Position numbers and translations under genes: made by a program
NCBI RefSeq assembly: GCF_022605165.1
Contig: NC_063073.1
Location: 1,922,001 to 1,986,000 of the forward strand
Length of the DNA: 64,000 bases
Origin: Purpureocillium takamizusanense
Lineage: Eukaryota > Ascomycota > Sordariomycetes > Hypocreales > Ophiocordycipitaceae
Reading direction: 5' to 3'
The notes under the pieces: model-generated
Database searches by the model: none
What the model was told of the DNA's origin: nothing
Seen by the model: only the letters and a program-made list of their open reading frames with translations
Shown here: positions 5,642 through 55,291 of the stretch, piece after piece
Position numbering within the stretch: position 1 is the stretch's first letter
Layout: each line of letters opens with the position of its first letter

Positions 5642-7515
5642 ACCTCAGCGTCTCGCAAAACCACCCGCCCGAGCCAGATATTGAAGCAATCCATGGATGC
5701 AATGCCTCCCTCGCAGACGCCGCTGACTGCGTCGTGTCGTGTCGTGTCGTCTCATGTCGGGTACACGGCAAATCCCCTGCCTCCTCCACCCCCCTTGTTT
5801 TCCATAACACAAGTGTCTTCGTCAGGTAATCTACAACACCTAAAAAGGTACCTACTCTGTCACGATGGCTTCGCCCCGACCAGCTTGTCTCATCATCCGG
5901 GCGCCGTCTCGCGCACCGTGGCAGGCCGCCCTCCTCATAACCGCGGCTGTCGGCATTTGCCACAGACCGATGGCGGACAATGGTGCCTTCACGATATTTG
6001 CGTATCGGCCCCAGGCAAGCTAAGGCGCCGCCAACTCACACAGTGCAATCGCCTTGGGACGACGACCAGGTTCCGAGCATGTCGCACCCGCGGGACGTCG
6101 GCCTGCACACACGGAAACGGTATCCCGGCTCATCAGGGGGAAGCACTGACTCTGATGATAAGGAAGAGACGCCGTGCAGAACGAGAGAGGCCCCGGGGTT
6201 CGTCATGTGAGCCAGCACGCGGCATTGCCCTGGTCCCCTGTCCGACTTCCGTTCCTGGGCATCATCCGCCACCCGATGCGCGCGCATTCGTCGTCTCTGG
6301 CCTTGCATCACCACAAGGTACGAAGTATACGGACTCTTAAAACGAGGCCCCTGCTGCCGAATCAACGTTGCACGGCATCTTGTGCTCCTCCGCGTCGCCC
6401 GTGCTGCACGTCTTTTCGGGCGGTTTCCCCCGTCCTCGTCTGTCTGGTCCAGATCGGCAAAAAGAAAAAGGGCAACCCCCCCCCTTCCACACGGCGCCAG
6501 CGACATTGAGCCTTGGATGTGGTCTGGGTTGCCATATCCAGACGGACCAACCTGGAAACTTAGTTCGCACCAGTCAGCGGTCGCACCTCTATCCCCTCGA
6601 GTCGCCGCCGAGCTCCAGCCTCACCATGATCCCCGCACGGGCCCGACGACGACGACGATAGCTCGTACGGCACTACATGTCGACTGTCTGTTTTCAGCTT
6701 CGGCGCAAAGACGCCCCAGGCCTGAGCTAAATGTTTCTGCGCAGCGGAGACCATCCAAACGCTCCGCACGACAGTGCCTCGCCCCGGGAACGAGCATGCC
6801 AGCATGACCGCTGCAGCGTGACTCCTCGCGACAAATAATGGATAAATGGCCGCCTCCTGGTTGCTTTGTTAGCTGTGAGCCATGGCCCGCACCTGTCCAT
6901 TCCTGGATCATTGTGCCAAGTACAGCACAACGCGACACATTGACTTCGACGCCCACAGCAGCCCAGCGGAGTCGACCATTTTGTTTCGTACGTCCATCCA
7001 CGGCGCGCTTTCTCGCCCCAGCGAGCAACGCCATCAATGCACCACCACGTACTTCGACACCATGAGTCGCATCCCAGACTATTGAGCCAGCCCCCCCGCC
7101 CCATCGCTGACCTCGTAGCGGCCGCAGCACAGGCGCATGCGATGACGGCGCCATGTTGATCTCTCCGCACGACGCACGACTCCTCACATGGTGGTCCCTC
7201 AGCCCCTTGGCGGGCGCTGACTTGGCTGGGGGCTCCCTTAAACCGGGGCCCCATCACACACGAGGCGTCATCTCATCACGCCTCCCCGTTTCGTGCCGTG
7301 GATAGAAAAGAAGGGGGATGAAGGACCATGCACTTGGTAGTACACATGGCACGACGACCACGACGGCAGCGATGGATGGTGGACGATGGCTTTCCAGCGT
7401 GAGGCTACCGCCAGTGTGTTGGCCAATACCACAGCAATGCACGAACCGGTCGACCCATCGTTGGCTTTGCCCGCTCCGGCGACAAGTCCCCGCGCGCGCA
7501 AGCCTGCATCAGCTA

Positions 7516-7558
7516 ACGTGGGCCCCCCAATTTCGGGCACACCCACTTTCGGGCATCC
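7516..7558 (+). repeat. left terminal inverted repeat of the pogo-like element
   Basis: About 43 bp matching the reverse complement of 16419-16461 with two visible C/T differences. It contains two copies of TTTCGGGCA separated by CACCCA-type sequence, plausible transposase-binding subrepeats. TA precedes it at 7514-7515. Confidence 0.9.
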
Positions 7559-8536
7559 CTTTTCAACACCAATACCGTCTCCACGCCACGCGTCGCGACC
7601 GCGTTTTCTACACCACAACAAGCGGCTTTTTTCAAACAAGTTGATGAGGCTATTCACGATGCCTAGGAAGACCGAATACAGCGAAGAAAACCTACAATTA
7701 GCCGTCGCAGCGGTTCGGAACGGCGCCTCGCAGCTACAGGCTGCCCGGGACTATAGGGTTCCAAGGGTCACGCTCCAAGGTCGTCTCAAAGGCGCGTCTT
7801 CGAGCGAAGTAGCTTTTTAAAAGCATCAACGTCTCTCTACTGACTAGGAAAGGCACCTTCGAGACTAGATCTTAGCCTAAGATGCCCTCGGGCTGCCACC
7901 AACATATCTATAAGTCAGGATCTTCGCAAGTAGGATCCTTTAAGCCGGAGGGGACCTCTCTACCCTTAGTAAGAACTAGATGACGGGCTTCTTACGCCGC
8001 AACCTAGAAGTCAAGACGATTAAAGGCAGGACTATTAATTCCGTACGGCTCAATAGTACGTCAATATTACGGATCAAGGAATAGTTCTAGTTACTAAGCC
8101 TCCCCGTAATTAAGGCCATCAAACTAGAAGACCGATATAATATAGATAAAATAGGGATACTAAAAGGTCTCGGAGTAAATGGCCTCGTACTTAAAAGAGC
8201 GGAAAAGTCATAGACCTTACGGAAACGTATTAAATTACGCTATTAGACTACTATCGTCGAATACGTCTCTATAACCGGCCGAGCCCTAACGCCGCTCGTA
8301 ATCTTTAAGGGCCAAGACCTCTAATAGCAGTAGTTTCCTTAAGAGGTAGCCTCTTTAGCTAACTAGAAGTTCGCGGCCACGGTAAAGGGCTAGACTAACG
8401 ATTTAATTGCCCTAGCCTAGCTCAAAGAGATCTTTATACCATAGACGAAGCCTTCCTTTAATAATAAGAGGCTACTTATATTAGATAGGTACGGAAGCTA
8501 TTAAACCGACGATTTTATATATAAGTGCTTTAAAGC

Positions 8537-8541
8537 CGGCG
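8537..8541 (+). repeat. target-site duplication, left copy (CGGCG)
   Basis: CGGCG lies immediately before the 5' LTR and is repeated exactly at 15629-15633 immediately after the 3' LTR. Five bases is the usual Ty3/gypsy duplication length. Confidence 0.92.
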
Positions 8542-8773
8542 TATAAAGGGCTTAGCCCAATGAGAAGCCCGGGGCGCAGCCCCGGGCGTAGCAACGCTAC
8601 GTATGGCTACGGCCTACGCTAACTCATGCCCGCAGCTAGTTACGTAGGCCCGCACGTAGCGGGCGCCGCGCGTATAGGGGCTACTCGGCATATAACCCCT
8701 ATTTCCCTCCTCTATAGCACGTAAATATTAATAACCCGACCGGCTCCTGCTATATAGCGCCGGCCCCGTTATA
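8542..8773 (+). repeat. 5' LTR (heavily RIP-mutated)
   Basis: 232 bp with no indels against the 3' LTR. It begins TATAA and ends TTATA where the 3' copy has TGTAA and TTACA, so the original termini were TG..CA within a 5-bp inverted repeat. By hand count there are 17 differences from the 3' LTR, all transitions; in 14 this copy has TA where the other keeps CA or TG. Confidence 0.93.
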
Positions 8774-8840
8774 ATATATGCTATCTACGATAGTAAACCA
8801 AGCAATAGAGATAGACCCGGCGGTAGCCTATAGGCTCTCG

Positions 8841-9003
8841 ATGGAATAGCGGGCGCAGTAGTAGGCGCAATAGCAGGCGCAATAGTAGGCGCAATAGCAG
8901 GCGGAATAATAAGCGCAATAATAGGCGCAATAGTAGGCGCTATAATAAGCGCAATAGTAGGCATAATAGCTAGCGTAATAGTAGGCGCTCTAATAAGCGG
9001 AAC
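8841..9003 (+). repeat. 12-bp tandem repeat in gag (Gln/Ala repeat)
   Basis: About thirteen imperfect copies of a 12-bp unit of the type GGCGCAATAGTA. In the gag frame this encodes Ala-Gln plus two positions that are now TAG/TAA stops and were most simply Gln codons. It is a coding repeat, not a CRISPR: unit spacing is zero and there are no unique spacers. Confidence 0.8.
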
Positions 9004-10030
9004 TTAAATATCTAAGGGCGTAGCTATAGTCTACGCTCAACCTAGCAGCCCCTAGCGGAGCGGCGCCTAAGCCTAGGAAGCGGAAGCCGCTCGAATAGCT
9101 AACGTAGGACGGCAAGACGGAATACTTTTACTTCTTCTTATATCGACTAAAGAGTAAATATAAGACTAACGAAGCGGAAGGCCTCAATAGGGAAAGCGGA
9201 GCTACTTAGTATTAGCTCCTTAATACGCTACCTACCCGGCTATAGCCCTATATAGAGGGATTTTAGACCTAGGGAGGACCTAGGGGCAATAAGGAACTAT
9301 AGGCCTTCTTTAACTATATCGAACGCCTCTTTAGTAGCGAGCGGGTTAAGGAAGGAGCGCTCGATAAGCTATAGGGCCTACGCTAGAGAGACGGGTAGCC
9401 CTTTAGTACCTTCTTCTCCGACTTCGAGAGTACCCTTATAAATATAGGTAGGTCTACCTAGATAGAAGATACCTAGATCTCGGTACTGCGGAATGCTATA
9501 TCCGACGCCTTAAAGGAATAGCTTATTACGGTATGGATACCGGTCGTCTTTTACGAATATACCCGGCGCCTTTAGGAAATCGCTTAGAACTTCGAGAGGA
9601 CCCCGCGCTTTAAGGAGCTCTAGAAGAGGGGCCGGGGCCGGTTCGAACGCCGGCCCGCGCCCCTAAGAGCGGACCGAGCCTACTCCCCCGCGGCTATCCC
9701 GACCGTCGACTATTATAGCGACGTTATAATATCGGCTACCCGCCCTAAAAGGCGCGGGACTAGCCTAAATAGAGGGGGCCCTTAAAGAGACTCGACTAAA
9801 GAGGGCGATAAGCCCCGTCGAGCTAAGTAAGCTACCGAAGACAAGAGGGAAAGAAGGAAGAGCGAAGGGCTATACCTTCGCTATAGAGGGAGCGGCTACC
9901 TTATAGCGCGCTACCCCTATGCCCTAGCGAAGCGGCCCGTAACGTCGAGCTCGGTCGGGCTACGCTATATAGTCTTCGTTAAGCTAGAGCTTAAGAGCGA
10001 GGTTAATAAAGAGAACGGAAGCGAAGAAGC
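8841..10030 (+). pseudogene. gag polyprotein remnant with CCHC zinc knuckle
   Basis: Capsid-type structural protein of the retrotransposon. From ATG 8841 the frame shows a Gln/Ala repeat domain (8841-9003), a capsid-like segment beginning near LRAxL at 9.02 kb, then a basic linker and a CCHC-type knuckle at 9873-9914. Knuckle ligand codons appear as TAT/TAC where Cys or His would stand, consistent with TG-to-TA and CA-to-TA change; the C-x2-C-x4-H-x4-C spacing is preserved. Stops are nearly all TAG. The end is approximate, because the following pol frame differs, implying frameshifting or a separate initiation in the intact element. Confidence 0.75.
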
Positions 10031-10079
10031 GGCGCCTACATAAGGAAAAGCGCTACCCTAGAGCGAAGCCGTACTCTAG

Positions 10080-13000
10080 GGCCTATAGTAATATAAGTAG
10101 AGAAAATAAAGCTTAAGGGACGCTTAGAGACGACCCCATCGGTAGTAATAGTATCGATTAATAAGAGTCCTCTTTATTCCGTACTTATCGATAAGGGATA
10201 CGAGTATTATATAGCTATAAACGAGGAAGTAGCCCGAGACCTTAAGGTCTTAATAGAGAAGATCCCTTCCCGTAAGGTAAGGGGTATATTAGGCATTATA
10301 GACGGGGTAGCTATTAAAGGGCTAGTATAGCTAGTCGCGGACATAGAGGGCCACCTATAGCCTATCTACGCCTATATAGTGCCCTAACTAGAGTTCCCCC
10401 TTATCCTAGGGAAGCCCTAAATATAATATACGAAGTCTTACTCGGTTCCGCACGAGGGTAGGCTATAATATAGGCTATCGCAAATATAGGTATAGCACTA
10501 TTAAGGGCCGCCCCTCGATAGCCCGCTCTCGAGGGATATAGAAGACGCCTATTACGTTATAGTATCGATATTCGTAAGGTATATACGGCGGATTAGGAAG
10601 CAAGAGGGTAGCGACGTAGCTAGGGCAACTATCTTCGCCGTTAGCATAAAGGATATCGAAAAAGCGCTTACGCCTAAGCGGCCTAAGTCAAGAGAGGAAC
10701 TCTAAAAGGTTATCCCGCCGCGCTTCTACGACCTACTTCTACTCTTCGAGAAGCAGGAAGTAAATAAGCTCAACCCCTATAAGCCCGGTATAGACTACTA
10801 GATCCCCCTTAAGAAGGGCCTAGACGGCTAGGACCTACCTATGCCCTATAGTACGCTTTATAGTATATCGCGCGAGGAAGTACTAGTCTTATGAAAGACC
10901 CTTAACGACCTTCTCGATAAGGGGTTTATTAAAGCTAGTAGCTTAGAGGCGGCGGCGCCTATCCTCTTCGTATAGAAGCTAGGGGGCGGGCTCCGCTTCT
11001 ATTATGACTACCGCGCCCTTAACGCTATTATAAAGGCGGACCGCTACCCTATCCCCCTTATCGGTAATACCCTCCGTAACCTAGTAGGCGCCCGTTAGTT
11101 TATTAAGCTCGATATAGTATAGGCGTTCTATAAGGTATAGGTAGTAGTAAGAGAGGAGTAAAAGACCGCCTTCCGTACGAGGTATAGTCTCTTTAAGTAG
11201 ATAGTTACCCCGTTTAGCCTTAGCGGCGCCTTAGCGACCTTCTAACGCTATATTAATAGCGTACTACGGGACTTCCTAGACGACTTCTACTCCGCCTATA
11301 TAGACGATATCCTTATCTATACGAGCGGCACCCTCGAGGAATACTACGTAAAGGTACGGTAAGTACTCGAGCGGCTACGAGACTATAGCCTATATCTTAA
11401 CCTAGATAAGTGCGAGTTTAGGGTTAAGACCGTTAAATACCTCGGTTTCGTTATCTACGTAGGTAAGGGTATCGAAGCGGACCCCGCGAAGATAAAAGCG
11501 GTCGTCGAATAGCTAGCCCTAACGACGTAAAAGGGGGTGCGGAGCTTCCTTAGGTTTATTAACTACTATTAGGTCTTTATACTTAAGTTCTCGGATATAG
11601 CGGCGCCGCTTATAGCTCTAACGGGGAAGCGGGTTCCATTCGTATAGGAGCGAGAGCACTAAGTAGCGTTCGAAGCCCTTAAGGAATTCTTTACGAAAGC
11701 CCCGATCCTCTCGCAATAGGACCCCGACTTACCTACCTTCTTAGAAGCGGACTATAGCGGGACCGCCCTAGGGGGAACGCTCTTATAGGATATAAATAGC
11801 TAACGGAAGCTAGTAGCCTTCTACTTATAGAAGCTATCCCCCGCCGAGCGGAACTACCCTATCTACGATAAGGAGATACTAGCGATTATCCGCTACCTAA
11901 AATAATAGTCGGCGGAGCTCTATAGCTACGAGAGCTTTACGGTATTTACGGACTATAAAAACCTAGAATATTTTATGACCCGTTAGCGCTTATCGGAGCG
12001 GTAGGCGCGCTAAGTAAAGCTACTCTCGAGGTTTAACTTCTCTTTAAAATATAGGCCGGGTAGGCTAGCTATAGTGCCTAACGCACTCTCTCGTAGGGAC
12101 TAAGATCGGGAGACCTAAGAAGACCGCGAGGCTAGAGACCTATAACTTATCCCTTAGAGCGCCCTCCGTATATATATCGGCGCTACCTCGACTATACCGA
12201 CGACCCTATTCTCCGACCCTTAATTAAGCTCCTTATAGTAGCGAGAGGTAGGGCGGGATACGATATACTAAAGCGCCTTTCGCGCGGTTAAGAGCGGCGC
12301 CTATGCCTTCGACCTAAAGCTCGGTCTTAAAGTATAAATCGTAGAGTATAGCCTCGATACAATAGGGAACCTCTACTATAGGGACCGCCTCTAGGTACCT
12401 AGCGCCCCCTAGGTAACGGAGGTAGAGGCGAAGTCCGCTCCTAAAGGAATAGACTCGTAAAACGAACTTAAGGGTCGGCTAATATAGCAGGCCTATAATT
12501 CGCCCCTCTCTAGGCACCCTAGTAAAGAGGGCATAGTAGCTATATTACTACGTAAGCTCTATTAGCCCCTAATATAGCAATACGTTAGGAGGTTCCTCCG
12601 CAACTATAATACCTATAGCCGCATAAAGATATAGAGGGAGTATAAAAAGGGCCTATTGCGGCCTCTACTTATACCCGACTAATTCTATAGGCAGATCTAA
12701 ATAGACTTTATTATAGACCTCCCCCCTATAAGCAGAAGCCGCTTCCTTTAGGTTATCCGGGATAGGCTTAGTAAGGAAGTTATACTAGAGCTAATAGCTA
12801 CTATAAATACTATTATATATATAGAGCGCTTCCTTTAATACTACTTCCGTTAATATAGCTAGCCCGCCGCTATTACGAGCGACTAAGGAATAAACTAAAT
12901 AAGTAACTTCTAGCAATACCTCTATAAGCTAATAGGCATCGAGTAGTAACTTAATACGGCATACTACCCTTAGATAGATAGGGGCATAGAGAGGATTAAC

Positions 13001-13830
13001 TAAGAAATACAAGTATACCTTAAGGCCTATATTAACTATAACTAAGACGACTAGGACCGATAGCTACCCATAGCCTAGCTTGCGCTTAATAGCTAAATAA
13101 GTATCTCGATCGGTATATCCCCTTTCTTCGCGCTCTATAGCTACTACCCCTAACCTATTATAAGCGGCCCCCTTACCCCTACGAGGGAAATAGGCTAGCG
13201 CGCTATACTAGAGAGTAAGGTATAGGCCTTCATAACGAAGCTTAAGTAAGTTATAAAGCTCTATAGCTCCGCGATAGTAGCGGCCTCGCTTAAGTAAGAG
13301 CGATAGGCTAACTATACGCGCGGCCCCATAGATAAGTATAAGGTAGGGGATAAAATCTAGCTCGACCTCTATAACTATACCTCTATAAGACCGAAGAAGA
13401 AGCTCGACTAACTATACTCGAAATATATAGTCAATAGGGTAGTAGGCCCGTATATAGTCGAGCTAACGGGCCTGCCCTCGGGCATATATAACCGTTTCTA
13501 TATAGACTAGCTACGGCGCGTAAGTAACGACCTTATACCCGGCTAGGCCGTTTTAGATAGTTAGCCCGTATTAATACGAGCGGGCGACGATACATTCTAT
13601 AAAGTAGAAGAGATCTCCGCGGTCTATTAGAAGCCCTATAGCCGGGGAGCTAGGGAAGAAGCCCTAGTTAAATAGAACGGATATCTCGAGCCAATATAGG
13701 AGCCGCTCGAAGAGGTAAGGCATACTAAGGCATATAAACGTTTTACGAGATAAGCTAATAAGGAGCGCTAAAAAGAAACGTCAGTATTAACTTTACCCCC
13801 CCCCGAGAGGGGGGGGCTACCCTACGGGGC
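10080..13830 (+). pseudogene. pol polyprotein remnant (PR-RT-RNaseH-IN-chromodomain)
   Basis: Retroelement replication polyprotein, riddled with TAG/TAA. Approximate domains: protease 10.13-10.44 kb (SVLIDKG replaces the family's usual D-S/T-G); reverse transcriptase 10.78-11.50 kb with YIDD at 11297-11308; RNase H from about 11.64 kb with EADYSG at 11.744 kb; integrase 12.64-13.48 kb. Integrase keeps Asp at 12704-12706, Asp at 12881-12883 and Glu at 12989-12991, i.e. D-58-D-35-E spacing. A chromodomain lies at 13595-13730, recognisable from VEEI and LVK-NGYLEP with aromatic Trp positions turned into TAG. The C-terminus is uncertain; it lies tail to tail with the antisense gene ending at 13835. 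Confidence 0.88.
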
Positions 13831-13834
13831 GCGG

Positions 13835-14705
13835 TTACTCCTCCTCCTCGTCCTCTTCCTCGTCCTCCTTATCTTCCTCCTCCTCCTCCTCCTTAGCGGC
13901 GGCAATAGCGGCAATAGCGGCGGGGGGAGCCCTAGCGAGGGCGGTAATAGCGGTCTCGACCGCTACGAGGCGGTCCTTAAGGGCACCTACCTCGGCAAAT
14001 AGCTAGGCATTACTGCCTAAGGTAGTAGCTAGGGCGGCGGGGACGGGGGCGGGGGCGGGGGCACTAAGGTTATCGGCGCTACCTCTATATAGGGGTTAGT
14101 AGCTATATCATCGGTACCGCATAGGGATAAAGGGAGGGGACTTACTTAGGCACGAGGCCTATACGCTTTAGTTCCTAAAGGTACCGGGTCGCCGCGTAAG
14201 CGGCGCTTAGTACCTTCTTCGCCTTAGCCTCTGCCTTCTCGGCGGCGGCGGCAATAGCGGCAGCGGCGTCGGCGGTAGCGGGGGGGGTAGCGGTAGTAGC
14301 GGCGGTAGCGGCGGTAGCGGTATCGGCGGCGGAGATTCGGCCGCGTAAGGCGGTAAGGAGGGCCGGGCCCGACTAACGGCACGCGCGGTTAGCTATATAG
14401 CAGCTATAATAGCTACCCTACGACTAACCGGCGCGGGCCGCGTAGTCGGCCTCTAGCCCGGCGTAATATACGTAAGGGTAGGAGCGGAGCTCCCCGATAG
14501 GAGCGTTAAGTCTTGCCCTCTTCTATCCTAAGTTAGCGATACCCGCACGAGGAGAGGCGGGTATACTTATAGAGGGCGATACCGGGGGCGGCGACGAGCG
14601 GCTATAGCGGGTGCCCCGAGGGGCAGCGGCAAGGCAGGCGGCGGGGGGGGGGGAGGCTAGGATAGCGACGGCGGCGGCCCGGAGCGTAGTAGAGGGGCCG
14701 GGCAT
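13835..14705 (-). pseudogene. antisense intron-containing gene inside the retrotransposon, function unknown
   Basis: Minus-strand reading frame of 269 codons in two exons: 14705-14146 and 14084-13835. The 61-bp intron has a GTAAGT donor, a perfect CTACTAAC branch site and a TAG acceptor, and the frame is kept across it (560 + 250 = 810 nt). Six in-frame stops occur, all TAG, as expected from RIP of CAG or TGG. Visible parts: an Ala/Pro/Ser-rich N-terminus; a Cys/His-cluster candidate near 14.40-14.48 kb in which several positions read Tyr (TAC/TAT, the RIP product of TGC/CAC); an Ala/Lys-rich helix; after the intron a coiled-coil-like segment (VGALKDRLVAVETAI) and an acidic tail ending at TAA 13835-13837. 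The ATG at 14705 is provisional because the frame stays open upstream. No family is assigned. Confidence 0.7.
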
Positions 14706-14888
14706 AGCTACCGCGAGGCGGGGGGGGCGACGGACCCGCGGCGGCGGCGGCGACGGCGACGGCGATAAGGGCTCCGAGAGCCCAGCCTAGGAGGACTCCG
14801 ACGATATCTATCCCTAACGTTAGCTCGGATCGGCACGCCCCCGCGCCCCGTAGGGCAGGGGAGCACGGGGAAGGAGGGACGAGCGGGC

Positions 14889-14952
14889 TTACTATTATTG
14901 CTATTGCTAGTATTATTGTTATTATTATTATTATTATTACTGCTATTATTAC
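14889..14952. repeat. (ATT)n trinucleotide microsatellite
   Basis: Imperfect TTA/ATT run between the antisense gene and the 3' LTR. On the minus strand it would read as poly-Asn in one frame, but that frame shows no other protein signal. Confidence 0.75.
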
Positions 14953-15365
14953 GGCAGCGGCGGCGACGGCGCGGCGGCGGCGGCAATAGTAAGGATATAA
15001 GAAGAAGGAAGGAAGCCCGCCGGGCCTAGGGGAAAGAGGTCCTTTTATAGTTATGCCGCATTAGTAGTTACGTAACGCTCGGAGGGCAACTTAGGGCGAA
15101 CGGCCGTTACGAAGTCGTTAACCCGGCCGGCCGTAAGTACGCGCGGGCCGGCGGGTAGGGCCCGCGCCGAGGGGGGTAGAGACGCCCAGTTAAAGGAAGT
15201 AGGGCCCCCACGAACGGACCTACGCACCATATAGCCGGCAGCAATAAAGGCTAGCCGCGCGCGCCCACTTACAGGCCGCCAGGCATAAAGGAAAAGGAGC
15301 CCCCAATTAAGGGGCCCGAGCAAGGGACCATCGCGAGCCCCCTCATAGCAGCCGGGGCCAGCCCC

Positions 15366-15393
15366 GGGGGGGGGGGAAGAGGGAGCGGGGGGG
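15366..15393 (+). promoter_or_regulatory. polypurine tract of the LTR retrotransposon
   Basis: A 28-base purine run (G-rich, one C at 15386) ends three bases before the 3' LTR. By position and composition it is the plus-strand primer site for reverse transcription. Confidence 0.7.
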
Positions 15394-15396
15394 TAA

Positions 15397-15628
15397 TGTA
15401 AAGGGCTTGGCCTAATAAGAAGCCCGGGGCGCAGCCCCGGGCGCAGCAACGCTACGTATGGCTACGGCCCACGCTGACTCATGCCCGCAGCCAGTCACGT
15501 AGGCCCGCACGTAGCGGGCGCCGCGCGTATAGGGGCTACTCGGCATACAACCCCTATTTCCCTCCTCTATAGCACGTAAATATCAACAACCCGACCGGCT
15601 CCTGCCACACAGCGCCGGCCCCATTACA
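15397..15628 (+). repeat. 3' LTR (nearly intact)
   Basis: 232 bp beginning TGTAA and ending TTACA. It retains most CA/TG dinucleotides that are TA in the 5' copy; only two differences from the 5' LTR show RIP-type change in this copy. Confidence 0.93.
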
Positions 15629-15633
15629 CGGCG
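15629..15633 (+). repeat. target-site duplication, right copy (CGGCG)
   Basis: Exact copy of 8537-8541. After it the transposase reading frame of the host DNA transposon resumes. Confidence 0.92.
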
Positions 15634-16418
15634 TTTTCCTACTTTTCCTACCGCTATATATATTATATATCCTCTAGCCTCTTAACGTCTCTTACTTTAC
15701 GCCGCTTAAGGCAGCCTATCGTCATGCCCTCGAGACCTTCATTATCTATAATGATACGAGCCCAATTAGAAAGGCTATATTTCTCAAGACTTATTATAAT
15801 GCCCGGAAGCTTACTCTAACGGTTAGGAATATATAAGGAGGCTGGCGAGGGTCGGGCTTATAGCTAGTCAATATAGCTAAGCCCCTTATAAGCCAGCTCG
15901 TCTTATAAGACTACGATCTAGCCTAATAGGTCTCTAAGACGCTAAAAAGGAAGCCGAGCCTAGAGATATATCTATTATATACACCACGGCGGTTATAAGA
16001 GGTACGTAACTTCGTTATTAGGCTCGTCAAGGAAGGAGAGGCAACCCAGACGATAAGGCGCTTATTTTGCAAGGTCGGCCGCGGGCTTAACAAGCAGAAT
16101 ATTGCTCTCGCTAAGGCCAATATAAAGATATAGAAATTGGAGTATCAATTAGAGCGTCTTCGGCCTCCAAAGAGATAGAAAATTAAACTCGATTCGAATC
16201 ACCGGTTTAGTAACATCAAGCAGGTCATTAAGACAAGGGAAAAGATAGCACGAATGCTTAACCCAGCGATACACGCCCGAGTCAACCAACAGCGCGAATT
16301 TAAGTCCCTATGCAATGAATGGCAGCTTTAATAGTCACGATAATATAAAAATCGGTCAAATTGGCCGCATTTTAATGTTGCAATCGAAAGTCACGATGCA
16401 TGCATTATGGTGTTGTGA

Positions 16419-16461
16419 GGGTGCCCGAAAATGGGTGTGCCCGAAATTGGGGGGCCCACGT
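16419..16461 (-). repeat. right terminal inverted repeat of the pogo-like element
   Basis: Reverse complement of 7516-7558 apart from two C/T differences, followed by TA at 16462-16463. Confidence 0.9.
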
Positions 16462-16463
16462 TA

Positions 16464-17700
16464 GGCCCGCAGTCCAGCCCGGTTTCGTCGCCGCGATCTT
16501 TGTGCCCCCTCACGACCGCGACGTCGTTCGATTGACTCGTCACTTACGTACCGCCTACTACAGTCTCGCCGTCGCCAAAGGAGCCCCAGCGATAGAGACC
16601 AAGGCAGAGCCAGCCAGCTGCTCGTGTGTTACGACGCCCGCAAGGAAGAGCCTCCTCGCGTCGTGCAGAGGCCAGGCCAAGCTCGGCGCGCCGTGTCAGC
16701 TGTCTGTCCCTCCTCCCTCTTGTCCATCTTCTTGTTCGTCTTTGGAGATTCCAGCTGCAGTGTCAGCTCCCCTTGCCTCGCACCACTTCTTCACACTGCC
16801 CGCCTGGGAACCCAGTCGCAACGCAGTCCTGGCCCAACCCCGGGCCACCCGTGCCACCCGCAAGCCCCCGCCGGCATTTGCCCCGCCGCCCGATGGACCC
16901 GGCCCCTTCGGAGCTCCAATGGGCCACAGATCCGGAACTTTGCCCCGCCTGGCCAGCCGGCTCCTCGCTTGCGGTGCCCCGGCTGCCGTCGACGCTCGCC
17001 AGGCCGATGCGTGATTCGTCCGAGCGCGACAAGCTTTGGCCCAGCATATGACACTTCCTCGTTCACCCACGTACGTATACTGTACGTACGTATGGGCGTA
17101 AGGGCGCGGCACCCGGATGAACGTGGATGCACATGCCGATGCAGTCGAGAAGGTGCGCCAACGGCATGTTTGAGACTGTCTACGAGCCACAGGCCCTGGC
17201 CCGGCAGGATCCCAGGTGCTGACGCCCTTGGTATTCTTCGTTTTGCCTGCTACGAAGTACTAACGTAGTATGATATAACAAGCGTCTTATGCTTGCTCCC
17301 ATGCTTGGGGCCTGCAACGTCCCGCGTAGTAGACAAGGCAAACGCAGGATAAGCCGCCCCTTGTAGCCGACGGGCCTTGTTTCAGCAATCGCGGCTACGC
17401 TTCGTCAGCCCGAAGCCCACCTCGTGCTCGAACAAGGCCCTCCCTTCGCGCAACAGGACATGTTCCAAGGCCGGCATCGCTCCGGCGCAGGCATGGCCCT
17501 TGTAAGTGCTGCAGCCGAAAGCGTCGGCAGATGGATGGGCTCCTCGCCATCTGGTTGATCAATGTCCGATGCTGCTCCATGTCGGTTGTTATCGCCAGTT
17601 ATGCACGCACGGACAGGTGTGTCCCGTGCGCCTCTAGCGATCGCACTGCAGTAATTCCTAAGAGATGCTCCCATCTCCTCATCTCGAATTCCTTCCTCGG
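16464..17700. other. intergenic, transposon to APC2 3' end
   Basis: Only overlapping composition-driven ORFs in several frames, with no domain. It contains the self-complementary words GTACGTATACTGTACGTACG at about 17.07-17.09 kb. The part next to 17.70 kb is presumably the APC2 3' UTR. Confidence 0.6.
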
Positions 17701-51215: not shown

Positions 51216-54200
51216 ATGAGCAGAGGCATGAAGCGGAAGCGTGCCCACCATGAAGCCGAACACGAAAACAACAAGAAGGAAAACGGCCGTGGCGCCAACG
51301 ACGCGTCTCGCAACGCCCATTCTCAGCGTCCACACGCCGAGTCACCTGTCAGCAGAGATTTGCTGAAGCAGTACTATCCCAAAGTTCAAACACTGAGAGA
51401 CTATGTGCTCTGCAGGCTTCCTGGGACCTCTCGGCTTCGCCGCAAAAAGATTACCTCCCTCGGCAATGGTCCACAATGCGGCGAGGTAGAGCCTCGTCTG
51501 GCCGGCGTCCTGGACTCGACCCTGGTCTGTTCCCGGGATGAACAGGCTGGCTCTAAGGATGAGAAAGACAGCGCGTATAAGCAGTACCTCTCTTTCTCGC
51601 AGCGCGGAGATGAGTCTTGTGTGACTCTCACGGATGCGACGGCGGGAGCCTACTCCGTCCAGGCCGAGGTTTGCATCCGCAAACGCCCTCGATGCTCACA
51701 CCGCGCCACGAGGCTAATAGCAAGAAGATAGTCGACTTCGTGATATGGCTGCTATTTCGCAGGCAAGGCACCGGCGCGGACCGCCCGAAGCATATCCTCT
51801 GTGATGGCTACATCAAAGGAGCCAACGCACGCGAGGCCGCAGACTCTGGCATCCACAACATCTGCCGCCGCCACCCCAACTCTCACGTTGACACACTCAA
51901 GCAAGCGCCGTGGACTCATCTGCTGGTCTTGCTCGGCAAGTCTGGAGAGGAGATCATGGTCAATCTGCTTGTTGGCTGCTCTGTGTTTTCCGCTGTTGAG
52001 GCGGGTCTCGGCAATTATTACCAGCTCAGTGGTACAGTTATCTCTCCGGAGGTGCAATCCCGTCTCGCAGACCATTGACCACCTGCAGGACTTCCGCTGT
52101 CTGAGCTGGATTTGTCCAAGCCCGCATCTGCCCTGGCAGCCGCGGCCCAGACCGAGGCAAAACGCGCATCCGATATCATCTTTGTCAGAAGTCGCATCTT
52201 CTATGCCAAGCCCGCAATCACAGCTCAGGGCCGTGTACACATCGGCTTCAAGCATATTCGTTCGTGCTGCATGACAAGCCCCCACGCTTTGATCTCCTGT
52301 CTGACAAAGCACAGACGTGCTGAACCGCTGCCGTTACGCGCGACCATTGTCTCGACCTGGAGACGGCCCGTCGCCTAGTGACGTGGAGCGGACCAAGCAC
52401 AACGATGCCAAGGCCATCAAAGTCATGATGTACATGTTTCCTCGGCAATTCGGGCTTCACAATGTCTTCACCAGCGACACAAATCGGTGGGAGACGACGC
52501 AGAGGTTCCAAGATTACACGTTACGAGAAACCGAGATTGCCGGTTTACTGGAGAAGCACCCGAAGCACCCGAGTCTTCAAGGTAGCCCACACCCCAAGAT
52601 CCCCAAGCGGCTCCGAGGCGCGCCGTTGGGACTTGTGCGGAAACTCCAGGTTCTGCATCACCGCTGTTCGTACACAGAGCTCCTAAGACATCACTGCCCG
52701 ACGTTTCTGGACGGCCGCCGCAGATCGAGGGGAGACAACTCACAGTTTGGGGCTGCGATGCACGGCACATTGCGACCTTCACACTCGGCAGATCGTCTCG
52801 CATGTCAGGCTGGACGGCGAGCAAAGCGACGGACGCGCAACGCACAGCCGAGCTCGCAGGTACATTTGCCTTCAAGCATCACTTCGTTCGTAGAATTAGC
52901 TTCCCCAGTCCCCCAAGTGTCGGCATTTTGTCAAGCCGCACTTTCCAAGCTCATACCCAGTGGGTTCTGGGGAGAGGGTGATACCATGTATCACAATAAG
53001 ACGACATTTCTGCGCAGTGTGGATCGCTTCATTAAACTGCGGCGGTTTGAATCCATGACGTTGCACGACATCGCCCAGGGCCTGAGAGTAAGTCATCAAA
53101 CCACATTAAACCAAGTGGTTGGCCTTTATTCGCTACCTTGTTGAACAAGAGTTGACATTGCGTTCTAAGGTAGCAGATTTGGATTGGCTTCAACCGCCGG
53201 GACAACAAGGCCGGAGACAATGCCAAAGCGACACAAACAAACGATTGGAAATTTTCCTCGAATTCCTCTACTACGTGTTCGACTCCCTCCTTATTCCGCT
53301 GATTCGGACCAATTTTTACGTGACCGAATCAAACACGCACCGATATCAAGTTTTCTATTTCCGCCATGACGTGTGGAGACTTGTCGCAGAGCCAGCCATG
53401 GCGGGCCTCAAGAGAGCCATGTTTGAGGAGTTACCGACAGCCGAAGCGCGGCAACTTCTCGATGTGCGTAAGCTGGGGTTCAGCCAGATCAGGCTGCTGC
53501 CAAAGGGAAAGAAAATGCGTCCGATCATGAACCTCCGGCGGAAGCAGCTGAGCAGGACCTCCTCGAAAATTCTCGGCCCCAGCATCAATTCGGTGCTCGG
53601 TCCCGTTCACACCGTACTCAAGTTTGAAAAGGTATGCCGTATTTCATGTTGGGCTGCCGCACTTGCCGTACTGATAAGGCTAGGACACAAACCCGCTCAA
53701 ACTTGGCTCAACGCTCTTTTCAGTCAGTGACATGTATACACGACTCAAACGTTTCAAGAAGTTGCTTGGCTGCGGTCAGAGGCAACTGTATTTTGCCAAG
53801 GTTGATGTCCGCGCTGCCTTCGACACCATTCCACAGGCTGCCGTCGTTAACCTCATGTCAACGGTCCCACTGGCGTCTCAGTACAACATAATGAAGCATG
53901 CAGAGGTCCTCCCAGGCGAGCGCACCATGGCGCAGCCAGACAAGCCTGCAACAAAGCCTATGAAACGTTGGCGAGCCGTCGCAAGCCCTAGTGGCGCCTT
54001 CAAGCCTTTCTCAGAACGTGTCGAGGACGATCTTGCGCGAGCCAAGAAGCATACGGTATTTGTGGACACCGTTTTCAGGAAGTCCTGGAATGCTCAGACC
54101 GTTTTGCAGCTCCTCACGCAACACGTGGAGCAAAATGTTGTGAAGGTTGGCAAGAAGTTCTACAGACAGAAGACCGGCATACCTCAAGGGTCTGTCCTGT

Positions 54201-55291
54201 CGTCATTCCTCTGCAACTACTTTTACGCCGACCTGGAAGCTCAGCACTTGGGTTTCCTCGACACTCCAGACTGCCTAGTCATGAGGCTCATTGACGACTT
54301 TTTGGTAATAACGCTCGACAAGAGCAAGGCCATCAGATTTGTCGAAGTGATGCATCGAGGACTGCCCGAGTATGGAGTCGGGGTCAGCAGGGAAAAGACG
54401 CTGGTCAACTTCGACGTGACGCTTGCCGACGGGGCTGTCGCTCGGGTCAGTGACGGGGCTGGCTTCCCGTATTGCGGCACAAGAATAGACTGCCGGACGC
54501 TGGACATCACCAAGGACAGAAGTAGGGACGAAGCAGCTGGTAAAGGAACCGTGGGGATCCCCTTTACCGGGACGTGAGGAAACTGACTTATCAAGGTATT
54601 GTCAACTCGCTGACAGTCGAGTACGGCCGGTCACCGGGTCAGAACTTCCAGCGCAAGATTCTCAGTAAGTTTTCACCTCCTCTCACCTCCTCTCCCCCCC
54701 CTCTTTCTCGGAGACGCGTGAGGACATGGATGCTCACGATCCCGACCAGACGCCTTCAAGATCCAGTCCCACCTCATGTTCTACGACACGGCGCACAACT
54801 CCACCGCCACGGTGCTGCAGTCACTGCACGATGCGTTCCGCGGGACCGCCCGCAAGATGTGGGCGTACGTTCGCTGCCTGCCGCGGCACCAGCAGCCCAA
54901 CGCCGGCCTGATAATGCGTGAGTCGGGTTCCATTGGGAATGCTTTGATATGTGGAGAGCTTCCTTTCCTCGACTAACCTACCGCCGGCAGGGACCATCAC
55001 CAAGGTCGCCGAGGTTGCTTTCCTTATTCTCTCGAGCAAGACGCGGAAAATGAGGTACCCGCAGTACATTTGCGAGATCCGCAAGGGCGAGGTCACTGCG
55101 TACGTGCCATGCCCATCGTACTATCACGAGGAGATGATGTTTGCTGACACGAATCAAGGACCGCGTATGGGGCATTCCAAGAGATACTAGAGCGGAAGCA
55201 AGCTGGCTATGGTGAGGTCCTTGAGTGGCTACGGAGCCAGAAAACAAGAGACTGGCTCAGAAGTAATAGTAGCGTCGGTGCAAGGCATTAA
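51216..55291 (+). CDS. TERT: telomerase reverse transcriptase, catalytic subunit
   Basis: Adds telomeric DNA to chromosome ends using the telomerase RNA as template. Ten exons close in phase: 51216-51668, 51728-52031, 52089-52259, 52315-53087, 53170-53631, 53684-54539, 54596-54664, 54750-54917, 54991-55099 and 55159-55291, giving 1,165 residues. The N-terminal region includes RDLLKQYYPKVQTLRDYVL. The RNA-binding domain includes FPRQFGLHNVFTS and GFWGEGDTMYHNK. The telomerase-specific T motif contains NFYVTES. The RT core has motif A AKVDVRAAFD (Asp at 53804-53806, about residue 762), motif B' KTGIPQGSVLSS and motif C RLIDDFLVIT (Asp pair at 54293-54298, about residues 925-926). The C-terminal extension follows (QSHLMFYDTAHNSTATVLQ). 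All catalytic residues are present. Introns 1 and 3 use weak donors (GTTTGC, GTTCGT). ATG 51216 is followed by a second in-frame Met at 51228. Confidence 0.95.

What the first reader, a model, noticed from the sequence alone, without database searches (positions are those of the whole stretch)
13835..14705. Antisense, intron-containing gene carried between pol and the 3' LTR of a fungal chromovirus
On the strand opposite gag-pol, a 269-codon frame is kept through a 61-bp intron with GTAAGT, a perfect CTACTAAC branch site and a TAG acceptor. The phase closes exactly. All six in-frame stops are TAG, the RIP product of CAG/TGG. Cys/His-cluster, helical and acidic-tail segments follow one another sensibly. 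Antisense extra ORFs are known in some plant gypsy elements; I know of none characterised in fungal chromoviruses. A spliced gene antisense to the element's own RNA cannot travel as a cDNA of its spliced message, so its intron survives retrotransposition. It could be a captured host gene or an element-encoded regulator. Convergence with pol also allows sense-antisense RNA.
Basis: partly seen in the sequence, partly recalled or inferred. Interest (0 to 1): 0.82.

Follow-up and report, generated by a model that had tools for sequence, protein, structure and literature searches.

The report
Spliced antisense gene in fungal retrotransposon
A decayed fungal retrotransposon family carries, backwards behind its usual genes, an extra gene with its own intron that looks like a real protein gene, an arrangement known from few fungi and of unknown function.

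Summary
A minus-strand frame at 13835-14705 closes in phase across a 61-nt intron (14085-14145) whose signal pattern is found at no other donor in the window. It lies inside an LTR element (8542-15628, 5-bp target duplication), in the same antisense place in 13 further aligned copies and in nine of nine distinct LTR pairs among 40 LTR hits. In two diverged copies the intron gathers transversions five to seven times faster than the exons; other copies show no such contrast. The exon-1 core has no gaps in 14 copies, the acidic tail only 3- and 6-nt gaps. Two corrections: the ATG at 14705 is probably not the start, since codon constraint continues upstream; and an antisense gene in chromodomain elements of a fungus is already known (brtn of Boty-like elements). 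Every copy seen is RIP-degraded; no protein relative was found. Six Tyr/Cys positions with Zn2Cys6 spacing, a likely helix and an acidic tail suggest, without proof, a nuclear regulator. Verdict: probably a real, spliced antisense accessory gene; a new variant of a known kind.

The parts
8542..15628 (+). whole LTR retrotransposon; 5' LTR 8542-8773, 3' LTR 15397-15628 (232 bp each, 17 differences, all transitions); 5-bp target duplication CGGCG at 8537-8541 and 15629-15633
10976..11455 (+). reverse transcriptase region of pol, RIP-degraded
   Evidence: RVT_1 84.7 bits at G000:C6:1932976-1933455; piece 11363-11509 matches RVT_1 below the cut-off
13562..13773 (+). C-terminal end of pol, chromodomain-like by eye
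   Evidence: translation; Pfam scan of this piece found nothing
13796..13816 (.). C9-GAGA-G8 palindrome between the convergent ends of pol and the antisense gene
   Evidence: sequence
13835..14084 (-). antisense gene, exon 2; ends in an acidic tail (17 of 20 last residues D or E) at 13838-13897 and TAA at 13835-13837
   Evidence: only 3- and 6-nt gaps among 14 copies
14085..14145 (-). spliceosomal intron, 61 nt here, 67 nt in L013 and L039, 58 nt in L023 and 60 nt in L022 as read from the alignment
14379..14474 (-). six Tyr/Cys-only codons (78, 81, 88, 99, 102, 109 counted from the ATG) at the spacing CX2CX6CX10CX2CX6C; Cys actually seen at 88 (L013), 102 (window, L009) and 109 (window)
   Evidence: chance of the spacing among 8 such positions in 32 about 0.2%
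14148..14240 (-). Lys/Ala/Glu-rich stretch before the intron, likely helical (by eye)
   Evidence: sequence; no profile match
14706..14804 (-). upstream extension of the same reading frame, Ser/Pro-rich, under third-position constraint in L013 against group A
   Evidence: in 14708-14830, 13 of 16 L013 transversions at third positions, 12 of 16 synonymous

Best explanation
The region is the RIP-ruined copy of a genuine, element-borne accessory gene of a Ty3/gypsy-type (probably chromovirus) LTR retrotransposon. It is read antisense to gag-pol from a start probably near 14800, spliced at 14085-14145, and ends convergently with pol. SUPPORTED by comparison of copies: it belongs to the element, is in the same place in all nine LTR-paired copies seen, keeps its intron, and in two diverged copies its exons changed less than the intron. 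INFERRED: because the intron lies on the strand opposite the genomic RNA, it is not removed when the element is reverse transcribed and so persists. INFERRED, weaker: the protein has a Cys cluster, a helical stretch and an acidic tail, and works in the nucleus as a regulator of the element or its chromatin, in the manner proposed for Grande GENE23, Retand TRP28 proteins and HTLV HBZ.
For: Same antisense place in 14 aligned copies and in nine of nine distinct same-strand LTR pairs. Transversions, intron against exons: L039 9 of 61 against 13 of 570 (Fisher p 8e-5); L013 8 of 62 against 10 of 385 in the exon-1 core (p 0.001). Gaps among 14 copies: none in 14540-14146, none in 14084-13900, 3- and 6-nt gaps only in the acidic tail, 4- and 2-nt insertions in the intron, 1-nt gaps just beyond the stop. 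Upstream part in L013: codon phases 13, 0, 3 with the excess at third positions (p 0.0002), 12 of 16 changes synonymous in the antisense frame, the best of six frames. Over 14146-14830 the L013 phases are 21, 3, 9 (p 0.0005). The pol frame behaves as it should in the same alignment (3, 28, 7). Intron pattern at one donor only in the window.
Against: Subfamilies A and B show no contrast: 0 of 62 intron sites and 3 of 631 exon sites differ, phases 6, 6, 4 are flat, and 4 of 9 upstream changes are synonymous in the gene frame against 5 of 9 in two others. L022 and L023, which keep only the 3' half, show none either (intron 2 of 59 and 2 of 58; exon 2 each 2 of 185; last 100 nt of exon 1 5 and 2 of 100). 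Taken alone, the exon-1 core in L013 is not significantly periodic (5, 1, 4; p 0.27), and L039 has 2 of 8 core and 2 of 5 exon-2 changes at third positions. Upstream of the ATG L013 changes as fast overall as its intron (15 of 119). L013 is a mosaic whose patch of 44 transversions runs from 14090 to 14872, with 5 elsewhere in the element, so its figures describe one recombined block and its exon 2 lies outside it. L013 also has two gaps (2 and 1 nt, net minus 3) that shift the frame between about 14740 and 14560. One sense frame is nearly as open in the core (7.0 against 6.1 stops per copy) and one in exon 2 (1.6 against 1.0); 10 of 16 upstream changes are also synonymous in a sense frame. No transcript data; no protein relative. 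Three of the six Cys positions are Tyr in all 14 copies and may never have been Cys. No Pfam match above a cut-off, Zn_clus included. Another chromodomain element of the genome (L042) shows no match to the gene.
Confidence: 0.6

Rival explanations
1. No protein gene: the stretch is a structured or regulatory 3' region of the element, and its GC-rich, Ala-codon-like composition leaves long frames on both strands by chance.
For: A sense frame is almost as open in the exon-1 core, and 4 antisense codons there are stops in all 14 copies. A versus B gives no codon signal.
Against: Intron/exon contrast in two diverged copies, absence of gaps in the core exon and of non-triplet gaps in exon 2, splice signals recognisable in 17 of 17 copies aligned across them, rarity of the pattern, and third-position excess upstream.
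Confidence: 0.12
2. The antisense RNA itself is the product: it pairs with the genomic RNA and feeds RNA silencing or lowers retrotransposition, and the protein is minor or absent.
For: Convergent arrangement with pol; suggested for such elements in the review PMC7264820 (passages read). Antisense transposon-derived RNAs are reported for Blumeria (PMC10648671, title and start of abstract seen in the listing).
Against: Does not explain synonymous bias, triplet gaps or an intron kept in phase. It can be true together with a protein.
Confidence: 0.15
3. A host gene captured recently by the element with its intron.
For: An intron of ordinary fungal type would fit capture of genomic DNA.
Against: No relative outside the element family in the host genome: 16 of 16 matches of the exon-1 protein piece lie in element copies (14) or diverged remnants of them (2). 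It is already in diverged lineages such as L039, L022 and L023, so it is old. The search is weakened by RIP changes in the query.
Confidence: 0.08
4. A sense-strand (env-like) reading frame occupies the region and the antisense frame is its shadow.
For: A sense frame with its third position in the same column is 10 of 16 synonymous upstream; one sense frame is fairly open in the core and in exon 2.
Against: In 14803-14541 the sense frames carry 7.6 to 13.7 stops per copy against 3.2 in the antisense gene frame (the other antisense frames 3.1 and 6.9); the intron pattern is on the minus strand only.
Confidence: 0.05

Closest known systems
brtn, antisense gene of Boty-like retrotransposons (Botrytis cinerea; Zhao et al. 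2011, Virology 417:248; paper not held, known here from passages in PMC7264820, PMC4227169, PMC8365987, PMC5987419)
   Same: Fungal gypsy element (BcGypsy1 in PMC8365987) whose gag-pol carries a CHROMO domain (PMC4227169), extra gene antisense between pol and 3' LTR (PMC7264820).
   Different: Sequence relationship could not be tested: no BRTN sequence was at hand. Whether brtn has an intron or a Cys cluster is unknown to me.
Antisense additional ORFs (aORF-3R) of plant LTR retrotransposons: Grande gene23, RIRE2, Retand TRP28, PvRetro13
   Same: Place and orientation; kept in most copies; GENE23 is nuclear and TRP28 is predicted to bind DNA (PMC7264820, PMC11963269, passages read).
   Different: Plant elements; the word 'intron' does not occur in the main text of either paper; no TRP28 match here.
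HBZ of HTLV-1 (named in PMC11963269; its structure recalled)
   Same: Antisense, spliced, nuclear regulator with an acidic region and a dimerising helix (splicing and structure recalled).
   Different: Virus of people, bZIP protein, promoter in the 3' LTR; no sequence relation expected.
Antisense homing endonuclease gene with a small spliceosomal intron in a nuclear group I intron (I-DsqI, PMC9548176, passages read)
   Same: A gene on the strand opposite the mobile element's own RNA that keeps a 47-nt spliceosomal intron and was shown to be spliced.
   Different: Different kind of mobile element and protein.
Fungal Zn2Cys6 proteins (PF00172)
   Same: Spacing of six Tyr/Cys-only positions (motif recalled).
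   Different: No profile match; the first loop lacks the basic residues of the GAL4 type (recalled); only three positions are seen as Cys.

Membership tests
Antisense additional ORF between pol and 3' LTR (aORF-3R) | Frame on the strand opposite gag-pol, between pol and 3' LTR | tested here: met
Antisense additional ORF between pol and 3' LTR (aORF-3R) | Present in all or most copies of the family, not a one-off transduction | tested here: met
   14 aligned copies; nine of nine distinct LTR pairs
Antisense additional ORF between pol and 3' LTR (aORF-3R) | Transcribed antisense | not testable with these tools
   no RNA data
brtn of Boty-like elements | Protein sequence similarity to BRTN | not tested
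   no BRTN sequence at hand; general protein searches found nothing
Ty3/gypsy LTR retrotransposon | Paired LTRs, target duplication, reverse transcriptase | tested here: met
Ty3/gypsy LTR retrotransposon | Integrase after the reverse transcriptase (gypsy domain order) | tested here: inconclusive
   rve profile gave 3 hits in the genome, none in the window; the copy is RIP-degraded
Chromovirus | Chromodomain at the C-terminus of pol | tested here: inconclusive
   no Pfam match in the window piece and none of the 12 Chromo hits of the genome lies in the window; resemblance by eye
Zn2Cys6 domain (PF00172) | Six Cys at CX2CX6CX5-12CX2CX6-8C | tested here: inconclusive
   spacing fits, 3 of 6 positions seen as Cys in some copy, the other 3 Tyr in 14 of 14 copies
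Zn2Cys6 domain (PF00172) | Profile match | tested here: not met
   (queries RIP-altered)
Spliceosomal intron | Donor, branch, acceptor and phase | tested here: met
Spliceosomal intron | Faster change than flanking exons | tested here: inconclusive
   met in L013 and L039, no contrast in subfamily B, L022 and L023
Spliceosomal intron | Splice junction in RNA | not testable with these tools
   no RNA data

The most novel reading that the evidence does not exclude
A fungal retrotransposon lineage encodes its own spliced, antisense, zinc-cluster regulator: a Zn2Cys6-type nucleic-acid-binding domain with a dimerising helix and an acidic tail. That would be a retrotransposon counterpart of HBZ built from the most typical fungal transcription-factor module, whose 5' half can be exchanged between element lineages by recombination ending inside the intron (as in the one mosaic, L013).
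Probability: 0.2. Interest if true: 0.75.

Novelty: new variant of a known kind. Interest (0 to 1): 0.5.

Why it matters
Antisense accessory genes of LTR retrotransposons are widespread in plants, recorded in few fungi, and of unknown function. Here many copies in one genome allow gene and intron to be judged by substitution and gap patterns despite heavy RIP. An intron that sits antisense to the genomic RNA is a natural test of the idea that such genes run on their own transcript. The Cys-cluster pattern gives a concrete hypothesis for what this one does.

Tried and rejected
Protein relatives: exon-1 piece of 131 residues with X at stops (2440 candidates, none at E 0.01; by its length rule this search could not see relatives above about 229 residues), and an alignment of five of the 14 copies over 219 residues (the 7992 candidates sharing most words, none). 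The database does hold Hypocreales (control with the APC2 gene of the window: 575 proteins, best 120 listed; best hit 90% unnamed, best named Purpureocillium lavendulum 84%), so absence may mean that RIP and missing annotation hide relatives. Pfam and PDB: nothing above cut-off (weak LPD30, E 0.02-0.03, dismissed). Plasmid records: no match. The stop-free RT hits of this genome were considered as possible undegraded elements with the same gene: the one fetched (L040) is LINE-like by its protein (by eye) and has no match to the gene; the others were not fetched. L042, a stretch with RT and Chromo hits of another element, gave no match. A second intron ending near 14525 was considered because of a CTAAC-GATAG pair, and dropped for want of a conserved donor (by eye). 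An upstream hydrophobic frame at about 14810-14730 was considered and dropped because changes there fall at its first codon positions (by eye). The regular-expression listing of intron lengths gave wrong values (43) for L014, L018 and L020 and (40, 41) for L023 and L022 by stopping at an earlier motif; the alignments were used instead. Window coordinates printed are off by 129 and were not used.

Papers: PMC7264820 (passages, sections 3 and 5), PMC11963269, PMC8365987, PMC4227169, PMC5987419, PMC9548176 (passages), PMC9409477 (a false hit on an author name), PMC3248453 and PMC2864245 (word finds only: no 'antisense' in either main text), PMC10648671 (listing only). Zhao et al. 2011 is not held. 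Whether other fungal antisense genes with introns are in print was looked for only with the searches.

Full report
WHAT WAS CHECKED. The intron pattern is found at no other donor on either strand of the 64-kb window (expected 0.16, or 0.00 with the full TACTAAC). Dinucleotides show strong RIP over the element (TpA 2.1-2.9, TpG 0.06-0.21 of expectation from 8500 to 15700; outside it 0.6-0.8 and 1.1-1.2, except 15700-16400 with 1.33 and 0.41).

THE ELEMENT. LTRs of 232 bp at 8542-8773 and 15397-15628 differ at 17 places, all transitions, and are flanked by the duplication CGGCG. A reverse transcriptase lies at 10976-11455. The end of pol looks like a chromodomain by eye, but no profile confirmed it, and no integrase profile matched in the window. 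The genome is probably that of a hypocrealean fungus near Purpureocillium, judged by the neighbouring APC2 gene (84% to P. lavendulum, the best named hit).

SISTER COPIES. The antisense stretch has 23 matching places in the own genome, short fragments included. Fifteen loci were fetched. Fourteen copies (window plus L009-L021) cover the whole gene and were aligned. L022 and L023 keep only its 3' half, L038 only part, and L039 is a diverged copy. Of 40 LTR hits, ten same-strand pairs lie 3-9 kb apart; one shares an LTR with another, so nine distinct elements, and nine of nine contain the gene in antisense (gene places). So the gene belongs to the element family.

INTRON. In 17 of 17 copies aligned across it (14 plus L039, L022, L023) donor, branch and acceptor are recognisable. 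The first donor base is A instead of G in five (L010, L016, L017, L018, L039) and the last acceptor base is A instead of G in six (L014, L018, L020, L021, L022, L023), as RIP would do. Length is 61 nt in subfamilies A and B, 67 nt in L013 and L039, and 58 and 60 nt in L023 and L022 as read from the alignment. Counting only transversions, which RIP does not make, L039 differs at 9 of 61 intron sites but 13 of 570 exon sites (14530-14146 plus 14084-13900; Fisher p 8e-5). L013 differs at 8 of 62 intron sites but 10 of 385 in the exon-1 core (p 0.001); its exon 2 (0 of 185) lies outside its recombined patch and is left out here (with it p is 1e-4). No contrast is seen in L022 and L023 (2 of 59 and 2 of 58 intron sites; 2 of 185 in exon 2 each; 5 and 2 of 100 in the end of exon 1) nor in subfamily B (0 of 62 in the intron, 3 of 631 in the exons). 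The contrast therefore rests on two copies.

GAPS. Among the 13 other copies relative to the window there are no gaps in 14540-14146 and none in 14084-13900; the acidic tail has only 6-nt (two copies) and 3-nt (one) insertions; the intron has a 4- and a 2-nt insertion (L013); 14803-14541 has 6-nt deletions in both B copies, and 1- or 2-nt gaps in three copies (L013, L018, L020); just beyond the stop are 1-nt gaps in all 13.

FRAME. For L013 against group A the transversions of 14708-14830 fall 13, 0, 3 over codon positions with the excess at the third position of the antisense frame (p 0.0002), and 12 of 16 are synonymous in it (10 of 16 in the best sense frame). Over 14146-14830 the split is 21, 3, 9 (p 0.0005), while the exon-1 core alone is 5, 1, 4 (p 0.27); in 14146-14707 7 of 17 are synonymous, against 3 to 6 of 17 in the other five frames. 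Subfamily B gives 6, 6, 4 (p 0.78) and L039 no excess. The pol frame in the same alignment gives 3, 28, 7, a fair positive control. Since the signal is strongest upstream of the ATG at 14705, and that codon is ATG in 2 of 14 copies, ATA in 10, ATC and GTC in the two B copies, the coding region probably starts higher, near 14800. Stops alone do not decide: 6.1 per copy in the antisense core frame (4 fixed in all 14), 11.3 and 11.7 in the other antisense frames, 7.0, 15.2 and 28.9 in the sense frames; in exon 2 1.0 against 1.6 in the most open sense frame.

MOSAIC. L013 has 44 transversions against group A between 14090 and 14872 and 5 in the rest of the element. It is a recombinant whose patch carries most of the intron and the 5' part of the antisense gene from another lineage. 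L039 has an intron of the same length but is close to group A upstream (2 of 118 against 15 of 119 for L013), so it is not simply the donor.

PROTEIN. Codons 78, 81, 88, 99, 102 and 109 hold only Tyr or Cys in all 14 copies, with Cys seen at 88 (L013), 102 (window, L009) and 109 (window). Their spacing is that of a Zn2Cys6 cluster (motif recalled); with eight such positions in 32 residues (counted by eye) the chance of the pattern is about 0.2%, but the motif was chosen after seeing it, RIP also turns Arg codons into Tyr codons, and no profile matched. A Lys/Glu/Ala-rich stretch precedes the intron and the protein ends in 17 acidic residues of 20. No relatives were found.

READING. The most economical account is an accessory protein gene of the element, expressed from its own antisense transcript and spliced. 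The intron survives retrotransposition because the genomic RNA carries it in reverse. What the protein does is inferred from its parts and from proposals made for similar genes: the Grande protein is nuclear, the Retand TRP28 domain is predicted to bind DNA, and regulatory roles have been suggested (PMC7264820, PMC11963269). The claim that nothing of the sort was known in fungal chromoviruses is wrong: Boty-like elements with a CHROMO domain carry brtn antisense between pol and 3' LTR (PMC7264820 section 5; PMC4227169; also PMC8365987 and PMC5987419). For antisense genes of mobile elements with small spliceosomal introns there is a tested parallel in I-DsqI (PMC9548176).

JUDGEMENT. Gene real and spliced: about 0.8. 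Element-encoded regulator rather than something else: about 0.4. Zinc-cluster regulator: about 0.2.

Noticed in passing
window 7513-7558 and 16419-16464: 46-bp inverted repeats (96%) and a transposase start with an HTH_psq domain at 7650-7817: the LTR element seems inserted in a roughly 1.86-kb Fot1/pogo-like DNA transposon (family name recalled).
   Followed up: partly
L013 (G000:C1:4473809-4482647): Mosaic element: a patch corresponding to window 14090-14872 comes from another lineage while the rest is like group A.
   Followed up: partly
G000:C1:4605918, C2:182294, C5:2023922, C6:1371633, C8:185286: Five reverse-transcriptase hits with equal scores and no stops in the same genome that has heavily RIP-mutated the LTR family; the one fetched (L040) is LINE-like by its protein, by eye.
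   Followed up: partly
window 54122-54400: A further RVT_1 hit (42 bits, open frame of 297 codons, no stops) elsewhere in the window, G000:C6:1976122-1976400.
   Followed up: no
window 8821-9012: Array of 12-nt tandem repeats just behind the 5' LTR, in the leader or start of gag.
   Followed up: no
window 13796-13816: C9-GAGA-G8 palindrome between the convergent ends of pol and the antisense gene; a C-run and a G-run remain there in most other copies (by eye).
   Followed up: no
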